Part shown: positions 373 through 2,520 of the stretch, piece by piece
How the letters are laid out: every line of letters begins with the position of its first letter
Position numbering within the stretch: the stretch's first letter is position 1
DNA from: Parafrankia irregularis
Lineage (GTDB): Bacteria > Actinomycetota > Actinomycetes > Frankiales > Frankiaceae
Direction: 5' to 3'
Assembly (NCBI RefSeq): GCF_001536285.1
Contig: NZ_FAOZ01000009.1
Span: 124,001-188,000, forward strand
DNA length: 64,000 nt
Program-made: the position numbers and the translations under genes
Notes under the pieces: model-generated
Databases searched by the model: none
What the model was told of the DNA's origin: nothing
Seen by the model: the letters and a program-made list of their open reading frames with translations, nothing else

Positions 373-843
373 ATGGCCGGCCTGGAGATCTTCACCGACG
401 GGGCCTGCAGCGGCAACCCCGGCCCGGGCGGCTGGGGTGCCGTGCTGCGCTACGGGGCACACGAGAAGACGCTGTACGGCGGTGAGGCCGCCGACACCAC
501 GAACAACCGGATGGAGCTGCTCGCCGCCATCAGGGCGTTGGAGGCACTCACCCGCCCGTCCACGGTGCGCCTGCACACCGACAGCCAGTACCTGCGCAAC
601 GGCGTCAGCGGATGGCTGCCGCGCTGGAAACGCAACGGGTGGCTGACCGCCGACAAGAAACCGGTCAAGAACGCCGACCTCTGGCAGCAGCTGGACGTCC
701 TGGCCGGCCGGCACACCATCGAATGGCTCTGGGTGAAAGGGCACGCTGGGCATCCCGACAACGAGCGCGCCGACCGGCTCGCGAACCGCGGGATGAAGGA
801 GGCCCGAACGCCCACGAAGCGTTCCGGTGTTACCTCGGGCTGA
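373..843 (+). CDS. rnhA: Ribonuclease HI
   Basis: 156 residues, normal length for bacterial RNase HI, which cuts the RNA strand of RNA-DNA hybrids using two metal ions. All catalytic positions are present: D9 in TDGACSGNPGPGGW, E48 in NNRMELL, D70 in HTDSQY, H124 in VKGHAGH and D134 in ERADRLAN. The start ATG is preceded by a strong ribosome binding site (GAGAGGGG, about 4 bases away). The last codons overlap the -35 box of the next gene's ECF41-type promoter (TGTTACC at 828-834), so rnhA and the downstream sigma factor are close neighbours but probably separate transcripts. Confidence 0.97.
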   Translation: MAGLEIFTDGACSGNPGPGGWGAVLRYGAHEKTLYGGEAADTTNNRMELLAAIRALEALTRPSTVRLHTDSQYLRNGVSGWLPRWKRNGWLTADKKPVKNADLWQQLDVLAGRHTIEWLWVKGHAGHPDNERADRLANRGMKEARTPTKRSGVTSG

Positions 844-854
844 TCCACTCCGTC
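828..854 (+). promoter_or_regulatory. ECF41-type promoter of the sigma factor gene
   Basis: TGTTACC at 828-834, a 16-base spacer, then CGTC at 851-854. This closely matches the published ECF41 consensus as I recall it (TGTCACA, 16 bases, CGTC). The identical box with the identical spacing occurs upstream of the decarboxylase gene on the other strand (2520-2494). The -10 box lies 54 bases before the GTG at 909 and leaves no room for the alternative GTG at 861. Confidence 0.8.
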
Positions 855-908
855 CAGATCGTGGCGGCGTGGCGGCAGTGCCGGGGCGATGAAGGGGACG
901 GTGGGTCG

Positions 909-1838
909 GTGGCTGGGCTGGAGCAGTTGGCGGAGCGGTTCGGCGAGCAACGGCCGTACCTGCGGTCGGTCGCGTACCGCCTGCTCGGCTCGTGGGACGA
1001 CGCGGACGACGCGGTGCAGGAATGCTGGGTCCGGCTGAGCCGATCCGACGTCGGCGAGGTGCTGAACCTGCGGGCCTGGCTCACCACCGTCACCAGCCGG
1101 ATCTGCCTGGACATGCTGCGGGCCCGGGCAAGCCGGCAGGAGCAGTCCCTCGATGGCGATGTGCCGCTGGACGTGCACCTGCCCGATCCGGTTGTCGCCC
1201 CGGCCACGGGCGCCGACCCCGAACACGAGGCACTGCTCGCCGACGCGGTCGGGCTCGCCCTGGACGTCGTCCTCGGGACGCTCAGCCCGCCCGAGCGGAT
1301 CGTCTACGTCCTGCACGACCTGTTCGCGGTCCCGATGGCCGACATCGCCGTGATCCTCGGCCGGACACCGGCGGCCACCAAACAGCTCGCGAGCCGCGCC
1401 CGCCAACGGGTCCAGGGCAACGCCCTCGGCGGCGTCCGCGCGAGGCAGCCGGCAACGGCGCCGGACCGGACCGCTGACCACGCGGTGGTCCAGGCGTTCT
1501 TCGCGGCCGCCCGCGCCGGCGACTTCGAGGGCCTGCTCGGCCTGCTGGCCCCGGAGGTCATCATGCGCGCCGACGGAGGCCCGAGCCGGCCGTCCGTCAC
1601 CGCGGTGGTGCGGGGTGCCGCGGCGGTCACCCGCCGAGCGCTGATGTTCGCCCGGCCGGACGCAGCCGTCCACCCGGTGCTGGTCGACGGTGAAACGGGT
1701 GTCGTCGTGACCGTCGCCGGGACGCCCGTGTCGGTCATGGGCTTCGCCGTACGTGCCGGCACCGTCGTCGCGATCGACGTGCTGGCCGACCCAGCCCGTC
1801 TCGAGCGCCTGCGCCTACCGGACCTGCCTGTGACGTAG
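909..1838 (+). CDS. ECF41-family (SigJ-like) RNA polymerase sigma factor with fused SnoaL-like domain
   Basis: About 309 residues from the GTG at 909. Sigma-2 covers roughly residues 1-75 (RSVAYRLLGSWDDADDAVQE, then RAWLTTVTSRICLDMLR), sigma-4 roughly 105-170 (LSPPERIVYVLHDLF, then an HTH in ADIAVILGRTPAATKQLASRA), and a SnoaL/NTF2-like regulatory domain roughly 190-300. The linker motif LPDP (91-94) resembles the conserved WLPEP of ECF41, and DGG at 222-224 resembles its DGGG motif; both tune activity of this family, which has no classical anti-sigma factor. The start is chosen because the ECF41-type box ends at 854. ECF41 genes usually sit beside a carboxymuconolactone decarboxylase, oxidoreductase or epimerase gene, exactly as here. 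The inducing signal is unknown. Confidence 0.93.
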   Translation: MAGLEQLAERFGEQRPYLRSVAYRLLGSWDDADDAVQECWVRLSRSDVGEVLNLRAWLTTVTSRICLDMLRARASRQEQSLDGDVPLDVHLPDPVVAPATGADPEHEALLADAVGLALDVVLGTLSPPERIVYVLHDLFAVPMADIAVILGRTPAATKQLASRARQRVQGNALGGVRARQPATAPDRTADHAVVQAFFAAARAGDFEGLLGLLAPEVIMRADGGPSRPSVTAVVRGAAAVTRRALMFARPDAAVHPVLVDGETGVVVTVAGTPVSVMGFAVRAGTVVAIDVLADPARLERLRLPDLPVT

Positions 1839-1845
1839 GCGTCTG

Positions 1846-1935
1846 TGCCGTGCTGTGCCGTGCTGTGCCGTGCCGTGCCGTGCTGTGCTGTGCTGTGCCG
1901 TGCCGTGCCGTGCCGGGCGGGGCGGGGCGGGGCGG
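1846..1935. repeat. Pentanucleotide tandem repeat (TGCCG/TGCTG)n followed by GGCGG runs
   Basis: Fourteen consecutive 5-base units, each TGCCG or TGCTG, cover 1846-1915 and then change to GGCGG-type repeats up to 1935. It lies between two convergent genes and is not in a supported coding region. Such short-unit arrays are prone to length change by slippage. No function is visible beyond separating the two genes. Confidence 0.9.
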
Positions 1936-1954
1936 TTCGGCGGAACCGCCCCGC
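1927..1954. terminator. Perfect 12-bp hairpin between convergent genes
   Basis: The arms at 1927-1938 and 1943-1954 are perfectly complementary with a GGCG loop. It stands between the stop of the sigma gene (1838) and the stop of the decarboxylase gene (1979), the expected place for a bidirectional terminator. There is no T-run on either side, which is common in GC-rich actinobacteria. Confidence 0.65.
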
Positions 1955-1978
1955 ACCGGCGACCACCACCTGATCTGG

Positions 1979-2443
1979 TCAGCTCCAGGAGGTGCCCGCG
2001 GGCTCCTTGATCGTGGTGTTGATCCGGTTGAAGAAGTTCGTCGTCGCGATCATCAGGATGATGGCGGCGAGCTGCTGCTCGTCGTAGTGCTTCGACGCCT
2101 CGGCCCAGATCTCGTCGGTGACCTGGCCGGGCCGGTCGCTCAGGCGGGTGACCGCCTCGGTGAGCACGAGCGCGGCCCGCTCGGCGTCGTCGAACAGCGG
2201 CGAGTCGTACCAGCCCGCCGTCGCGTGCAGCCGCTCGTCGCTCTCCCCGGCCTTGCGCGCGTTCGTCACGCCCGCGTGCACGCAGGCCCCACAGCCGTTG
2301 ATCTGGCTTGCCCGCAGATGAACGAGCTCCATCGTCCTCGGGTCCACCCCGCCCGCGGCCATCGCCCTGTACAGGGCCTGTATCGCCTCCATGCCGTGCG
2401 GCAACAGCAGCGCCGGGTTCTTCATCCGTGCCTGCATCGTCAT
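1979..2443 (-). CDS. Carboxymuconolactone decarboxylase / AhpD-like protein
   Basis: 154 residues, all-helical AhpD-like fold. The signature is at residues 41-60, where CGAC (C51, C54) and H56 form the redox/proton-relay motif of AhpD-type alkylhydroperoxidase proteins. The protein is probably cytoplasmic and acts as a thiol-dependent peroxidase or a decarboxylase-like enzyme; the substrate cannot be read from sequence. It is preceded by an ECF41-type promoter (2494-2520), so it is the predicted main target of the adjacent sigma factor. It is convergent with that gene, as in many ECF41 loci. The epimerase gene on the same strand lies upstream of this promoter and appears to be separately expressed. 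Confidence 0.92.
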   Translation of the reverse strand: MTMQARMKNPALLLPHGMEAIQALYRAMAAGGVDPRTMELVHLRASQINGCGACVHAGVTNARKAGESDERLHATAGWYDSPLFDDAERAALVLTEAVTRLSDRPGQVTDEIWAEASKHYDEQQLAAIILMIATTNFFNRINTTIKEPAGTSWS

Positions 2444-2493
2444 CCTCTTTCACTCCCTGCCGAGATGCTCTTTCTCGCGGCTGACAGGGAGGA

Positions 2494-2520
2494 GACGGAC
2501 GGGATCGCACGGAGGTAACA
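2494..2520 (-). promoter_or_regulatory. ECF41-type promoter of the decarboxylase gene
   Basis: Read on the minus strand: TGTTACC at 2520-2514, a 16-base spacer, CGTC at 2497-2494. Box sequence and spacing are identical to the copy upstream of the sigma gene. The start codon lies 50 bases downstream of the -10 box, giving a leader of about 40 bases that contains a purine-rich ribosome binding region. Confidence 0.8.

What the first reader, a model, noticed from the sequence alone, without database searches (positions are those of the whole stretch)
828..2520. Autoregulated ECF41 sigma circuit visible in the DNA
The same box, TGTTACC then 16 bases then CGTC, occurs before the sigma gene (828-854) and, on the other strand, before the carboxymuconolactone-decarboxylase-like gene (2520-2494). 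It matches the reported ECF41 consensus (TGTCACA-N16-CGTC, from memory) apart from two bases in the -35 box, which are the same two in both copies. The sigma factor carries the ECF41 marks LPDP and DGG. This gives a predicted regulon of the sigma gene itself plus its neighbour, and fixes the sigma start at 909.
Basis: partly seen in the sequence, partly recalled or inferred. Interest (0 to 1): 0.7.

Follow-up and report, generated by a model that had tools for sequence, protein, structure and literature searches.

The report
Self-regulating sigma factor with variant promoter
A soil actinobacterium carries a gene switch (an ECF41-type sigma factor) that appears to turn on itself and one neighbouring antioxidant-like enzyme gene through a slightly altered copy of a known DNA signal, and comparison with relatives suggests which amino acids read which letters of that signal.

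Summary
Boxes of the same class recur before both genes in three related genomes and at a divergent pair in a fourth, so a self-regulated two-gene circuit is well supported, though without transcription data. GTG 909 is the best start. No third target stood out, but only a few other matches were examined in context.

The odd base (T at -35 position 4) is a lineage trait: 6 of 117 boxed ECF41 loci, five in one clade. More generally, box letters follow sigma residues: residue 68 D goes with CGTC, N with GGTC/TGTC (112 of 115 rows; 0 of 5000 tree simulations as good); residue 158 R/K goes with C at position 6, T/A with G (one origin); K goes with C at position 7. By my count these residues match DNA-facing ones in solved ECF sigma structures. 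What causes T at position 4 is unidentified. A general ECF code is already published and I could not read it. Known kind of circuit, variant promoter class.

The parts
828..854 (+). Predicted ECF41-type promoter of the sigma gene: -35 TGTTACC (828-834), 16-base spacer, -10 CGTC (851-854). Overlaps the last codons and stop (841-843) of the rnhA frame 373-843.
   Evidence: Exact match; same class of box before the sigma gene in G020, G018, G015, G002 and G089.
909..1838 (+). ECF41-type sigma factor, 309 aa, GTG start; AAGGGG at 892-897 is a plausible ribosome site.
   Evidence: Pfam Sigma70_r2, Sigma70_r4_2, SnoaL_2; SigJ 5xe7 best solved relative, E 1.4e-37; NCBIfam SigJ model 235 bits, below its cut-off of 271.
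1110..1112 (+). Codon of Asp68 (sigma region 2), residue that varies with the first base of the -10 element among ECF41 relatives.
   Evidence: codon read.
1380..1382 (+). Codon of Lys158 (sigma-4 recognition helix), residue that varies with -35 positions 6 and 7 among ECF41 relatives.
   Evidence: codon read.
2494..2520 (-). Predicted ECF41-type promoter of the CMD gene: -35 TGTTACC (2520-2514), 16-base spacer, -10 CGTC (2497-2494).
   Evidence: Exact match; TGTTACC in G020, CGTTACT in G018, CGTTACC in G015 and G002 before the CMD gene.
1979..2443 (-). CMD/AhpD-like protein, 154 aa, with CxxC (CGAC); predicted target.
   Evidence: Pfam CMD E 3.8e-18; NCBIfam ahpD_dom above its cut-off.

Best explanation
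An autoregulated ECF41-type circuit. The sigma factor, probably held in check by its own fused SnoaL-like domain until an unknown signal comes, directs RNA polymerase to TGTTACC-N16-CGTC before its own gene and before the convergent CMD/AhpD-like gene, so that it amplifies itself and makes one CxxC enzyme, perhaps for peroxide or thiol stress. The box is a lineage-specific version of the ECF41 box that travels with this sigma factor; the ECF41-like gene on contig C1 of the same genome keeps the classical TGTCACA-N16-CGTC, so the two may be insulated from each other. Shown: boxes, domains, conservation at orthologous loci, protein-DNA covariation. Inferred: transcription, feedback, control by the SnoaL domain, signal, enzyme role, insulation.
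For: Two exact boxes against 0.0096 expected. Same class of box before both sigma and CMD in G020, G018, G015 and, at a divergent pair with a 41%-identical CMD, in G002; by eye the DNA around the box is unlike between this genome and G018/G015. In 14 of 14 loci with boxes before both sigma and CMD the two boxes have the same base at -35 positions 4 and 6 and at the first -10 base. Sigma domains, CMD with CxxC. Wecke et al. showed for two ECF41 factors that the neighbouring CMD gene, with such a box, is the only detectable target and that the C-terminal part controls activity (PMC3426412, abstract, sections 18 and 27 read, passages elsewhere).
Against: No transcription data. The sigma protein scores below the cut-off of NCBI's SigJ model. 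Position 7 and position 1 of the box agree between sigma and CMD boxes in only 7 of 14 loci, and in the hold-out the first -10 base is identical in 5 of 7 such loci (both non-C in the other two). The convergent order is rare in the published survey (9 of 373; boxes before 3 sigma and 4 COE genes). Feedback is not general in ECF41: many sigma genes there lack a box, and in the scan here 50 of 134 sigma upstreams did not reach the threshold.
Confidence: 0.85

Rival explanations
1. The box is read mainly by another sigma factor of the cell (an ECF41 paralog or other ECF), so the locus is cross-regulated rather than autoregulated.
For: The genome has two further intact ECF41-like genes (C3, C1) and other ECF-like matches; TGTTACC and TGTCACA differ by two bases only.
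Against: The T class of box goes with this sigma clade: 5 of the 6 T-class loci are one clade (SH-aLRT 94). The C1 gene has its own classical box.
Confidence: 0.1
2. Only the CMD promoter is real; the box before the sigma gene is fixed by the codons of rnhA's 3' end, which it overlaps.
For: 828-834 lies inside the rnhA frame 373-843, and that frame is conserved in G020 (98%).
Against: G018 and G015 have a TGTTAC-N17-CGTC box at 62-66 bases before the sigma start with no rnhA match in the 9-kb stretches searched.
Confidence: 0.03
3. The paired boxes are a chance match.
For: The three other exact copies in the genome are not placed like promoters, which shows that chance copies occur.
Against: 0.0096 copies expected per window, two found at the right places, and recurrence in other genomes.
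Confidence: 0.01

Closest known systems
ECF41 sigma factors of Bacillus licheniformis and Rhodobacter sphaeroides (Wecke et al. 2012, PMC3426412)
   Same: Sigma-2 and sigma-4 with a fused C-terminal domain, CMD neighbour with CxxC, box of -35 + 16 + CGTC before the target, no anti-sigma gene seen beside it.
   Different: -35 is TGTTACC, not TGTCACA; both genes carry a box and are convergent; the text of that paper contains no TGTTAC, TGTCAG or GGTC motif.
SigJ of Mycobacterium tuberculosis (structure 5xe7)
   Same: Closest solved relative over residues 9-291; same domain order; called ECF41 in PMC8999054.
   Different: Has Asp and Arg at the sites aligned with 68 and 158, where this protein has Asp and Lys.
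General ECF promoter code (Todor et al. 2020)
   Same: According to PMC8103513 (passages) it links sigma-2/sigma-4 residues to -10/-35 bases using autoregulated ECFs, the same logic as here.
   Different: Not held; whether it already lists residues 68 and 158 for ECF41 is unknown.

Membership tests
ECF41 | Sigma-2 and sigma-4 plus a large C-terminal extension (SnoaL-like) | tested here: met
   Sigma70_r2, Sigma70_r4_2 and SnoaL_2 above Pfam cut-offs.
[quoted passage not shown]
   HLPDP in the linker; relatives range from WLPEP to LPDP.
ECF41 | Three conserved motifs in the C-terminal extension | tested here: inconclusive
   DGG is present, but the motif letters are only in a figure that is not held; recalled.
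ECF41 | Neighbouring gene for a CMD (with CxxC), oxidoreductase or epimerase | tested here: met
   CMD 2443-1979 with CGAC; an epimerase-like gene lies beyond it.
ECF41 | No obvious anti-sigma gene next to the sigma gene | tested here: met
   Adjacent genes are RNase HI and CMD.
ECF41 | Promoter TGTCACA-n16-CGTC before the target or the sigma gene | tested here: inconclusive
   Present with 9 of 11 bases, exact spacing and exact -10; -35 differs at positions 4 and 7.
ECF41 | Sequence family model (NCBIfam SigJ, NF007214) | tested here: not met
   235 bits, best of 37 families but below the curated cut-off of 271. This model is for the SigJ subfamily and does not define ECF41.
ECF41 | Sigma factor activates its COE gene and is controlled by its fused domain | not testable with these tools
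   Needs expression experiments.

The most novel reading that the evidence does not exclude
ECF41 factors follow a readable, evolving address code: sigma-2 residue 68 (D or N) sets the first -10 base (C, or G/T), and sigma-4 residue 158 (R, K, or T/A) sets -35 positions 6 and 7. Lineages change sigma residues and promoter bases together, so paralogs in one cell stay insulated; the class with T at position 4, seen in this window, is one such private address whose reading residue is still unknown.
Probability: 0.6. Interest if true: 0.5.

Novelty: new variant of a known kind. Interest (0 to 1): 0.4.

Why it matters
ECF41 factors are common and often present several times per actinobacterial genome (PMC3426412), and the papers read here give them one shared consensus. 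If residues 68 and 158 set the box, boxes of uncharacterised ECF41 factors could be predicted from protein sequence, cross-talk between paralogs tested, and orthogonal promoter pairs chosen. The residue-68 pattern also bears on how ECF factors read the base upstream of the -10 G, which one crystallographic study left open (PMC6372665, passages).

Tried and rejected
Rejected: rnhA coding constraint as the reason for the sigma box (box present without an rnhA match in the stretches held for G018 and G015). Rejected: the epimerase-like gene 2613-3620 as part of the circuit: in the first 9 kb of the window the nearest relaxed match before it is about 425 bases upstream, with a 17-base spacer, inside the next gene, and no match to this gene was found in the 9-kb stretches of G018 and G015, though it is present beside the CMD gene in G020. 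Rejected: in-frame GTG 861 as start.

Led nowhere: the residue behind T at position 4. Columns 148 and 150 are the most enriched, but V/A148 with L150 also occurs in 6 of 111 loci with C there. Independent-pairs tests had at most 2 supported pairs. The order holds only 35 genomes, the same as the family. A class-wide profile search of 393 genomes ranked the six known T-class sigmas first and I saw no new one; five of the six had formed the profile, and lower-ranked hits were checked only where they were already in the box set.

Literature: searches; a search for TGTTACC with 'sigma factor' and 'ECF' found no held paper with all three terms (the listing puts papers with more terms first, and its top five hold no TGTTACC). 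Todor 2020, Casas-Pastor 2021, Goutam 2017 and Fang 2019 are not held, so absence from print is not claimed.

Rows dropped: L079 (remnant) and L097 (same locus as L062), leaving 134 loci; L076 and L127 before the trees. Boxes count only with score 16.5 or more and a spacer of exactly 16: 84 of 134 before sigma, 91 of 134 before sigma or CMD; 43 loci had none. The scoring weights favour C slightly at positions 4 and 6 and at the first -10 base; they do not use the protein. L157's box (283 bases upstream) is doubtful but was kept. Hold-out: 29 of the 40 rows (the own locus and 10 rows already in the set left out) plus one row; 26 of 30 had a box.

Full report
OBSERVATION. The two boxes are exact at 828-854 (+) and 2520-2494 (-). 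A first-order Markov estimate gives 0.0096 exact copies per 64-kb window and 1.4 per 9.54-Mb genome; 2 and 5 were found. The sigma gene 909-1838 encodes 309 aa with Sigma70_r2, Sigma70_r4_2 and SnoaL_2; its closest solved relative is SigJ, 5xe7. The convergent gene 2443-1979 encodes a CMD/AhpD-like protein with CxxC. Its box lies between it and an epimerase-like gene (2613-3620) on the same strand, so the CMD gene has a candidate start of its own.

CONSERVATION. In the family, 29 of 35 held genomes (own included) have a sigma match at E 1e-40 or better. The convergent sigma/CMD pair recurs in G020 (the contig has the length and match of the Parafrankia sp. EUN1f record L062), G018 and G015. 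Boxes before sigma / CMD: this genome TGTTACC / TGTTACC; G020 the same; G018 TGTTACG / CGTTACT; G015 TGTTACC / CGTTACC; and, at a divergent pair, G002 TGTTACC / CGTTACC, all with 16-base spacers and CGTC. The codons at the start position are GTG here and in G020 and ATG in G018 and G015; G020 has one base more between box and start. This favours 909 over the in-frame GTG at 861. AAGGGG at 892-897 is a plausible ribosome site (read by eye).

GENOME SCAN. Of the three exact copies outside the locus, the one on C6 lies between two minus-strand frames and points against them, the one on C8 lies antisense inside a carboxykinase-like frame, and the one on C26 lies just inside the start of a substrate-binding-protein-like frame (these protein names are my own reading of the translations, not a search). 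The wider pattern BGTTAC-N17-CGTC gave 44, 38, 28 and 26 places in G000, G020, G018 and G015 (reversed-pattern controls 12, 12, 5 and 5). Several of these recur between genomes and look by eye like coding sequence. Gene context was examined only for the sigma/CMD pair, the three copies above and the window place at 63050, so a wider regulon is not excluded. The own genome has three intact ECF41-like genes (window, C3, C1) and a remnant on C38. The C1 gene carries TGTCACA-N16-CGTC. No good box was seen in 350 bases before the C3 gene, which follows an NAD-binding/NmrA-like frame.

BOX CLASSES AND COVARIATION. Upstream regions of 134 sigma loci were scored with one matrix that ignores the protein. 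84 of 134 reach 16.5, against 2.1% of Markov controls; 91 have a box before sigma or CMD. Residue 68: D with first -10 base C in 62 of 62; N with G in 22, T in 5, C in 2 (L078, L157). Residue 158: R with C at -35 position 6 in 69 of 70, K in 12 of 12; T or A with G in 9 of 9. K goes with C at position 7 in 9 of 12; R with C there in 0 of 70. Among sigma columns up to 185 (those at most 20% gaps), mutual information peaks at residue 68 for the first -10 base (0.75, next 0.42) and at 158 for position 6 (0.40, next 0.26) and position 7 (0.35, next 0.21).

HOLD-OUT. Of 30 new loci, drawn mostly from a wider sample of the phylum, 26 have a box: D with C 12 and with G 1 (L276); N with G or T 13 of 13. 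All 26 have R158 and C at position 6, so the K and T/A parts of the rule were not tested there; one R158 locus (L256) has C at position 7, against the K-C association.

RELATEDNESS CONTROL. On a 115-row tree built without columns 68 and 157-159, the second trait was simulated 5000 times independently of the first, at a rate giving about the observed number of changes. The observed association was reached 0 times for residue 68 with the first -10 base (112 of 115 agree; 9 and 10 changes); 3 times for 158 T/A with G at position 6 (114 of 115 agree, but a single origin); 0 times for K158 with C at position 7 (110 of 115); once for K158 with T at position 4 (107 of 115; T has 2 origins, K 7), which I treat as a lead only. 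Independent-pairs tests were uninformative.

STRUCTURE. By alignment and spacing, residue 158 corresponds to E. coli sigma-E R171, which H-bonds template G'-31, partner of the fifth base of GGAAC (PMC6713349, passages). With the G of TGTCACA as that element's first base, box position 6 is the fifth. In Mtb sigma-H the site is M181, which partly sets the fourth and fifth bases (PMC6411747, passages), and in C. glutamicum R170 serves the fifth (PMC11588781, passages). Residue 68 stands 11 after Trp57; sigma-H N92 stands 11 after W81 and H-bonds the template base of the -10 G:C pair (PMC6411747, section 11). In sigma-L, helix 78-82 was proposed, without direct evidence, to contact the two bases upstream of its -10 element (PMC6372665, passages); Trp68 plus 11 is 79. 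These equivalences are my count, not a superposition; and in sigma-H the contact is to the base next to the one that covaries here.

THE T CLASS. Six of 117 boxed loci (91 plus 26) have T at position 4. This genome, L062, L098, L099 and L118 form a clade (SH-aLRT 94) inside a 23-row group (SH-aLRT 88) whose other 18 members all have N68 and, where a box was found (16), GGTC. On the simplest reading D68 and CGTC came back together in this lineage. L149 from another family has TGTTACC and K158, is unresolved in the tree, and has no CMD match in 9 kb. L098 has T at position 4 with R158, so K158 is not required.

MECHANISM. In two studied ECF41 factors the neighbouring CMD gene is the only detectable target, part of the extension is needed and the rest restrains activity (PMC3426412, sections 18 and 27 read, passages elsewhere). 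The same is inferred here. Signal and substrate are unknown; a peroxide or thiol role rests on CxxC and on that paper's suggestion.

VERDICT. The residue-to-base pattern is the more interesting result, but a general ECF code is published (Todor et al. 2020, known to me only through PMC8103513), so novelty for ECF41 is unverified.

Noticed in passing
L079 (G000:C38:4000-13000), about 4035-4964, minus strand: Degenerate ECF41 locus: an NAD-binding/epimerase-like frame after a TGTCACG-N16-CGTC box, followed by a frame holding only the SnoaL-like end of an ECF41 factor; sigma-2 and sigma-4 were not found there.
   Followed up: partly
window 63050-63076 (+): TGTTACT-N16-CGTC, intergenic, with a near-identical copy in G020, roughly 290 bases before a substrate-binding-protein-like gene; it overlaps an inverted repeat TAGATGA/TCATCTA (by eye), so it may be an operator rather than a promoter.
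   Followed up: partly
window 1844-1958: Between the convergent sigma and CMD genes: a run of TGCCG/TGCTG-like repeats (by eye) and an inverted repeat with arms 1923-1938 and 1943-1958, a possible two-way terminator.
   Followed up: partly
L141, L148, L161, L168, L176, L177, L183, upstream of sigma: Seven related N68 sigma loci share CGTCCGA-N16-GGTC at 69-103 bases upstream, below the box threshold (score 14.9): perhaps a further -35 class, or simply close kinship.
   Followed up: no
window, sigma residues about 80-85 and 173-180: This sigma factor and L062 carry short insertions beside the LPDP linker motif and at the start of the C-terminal extension that L098, L099 and most relatives lack.
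   Followed up: no
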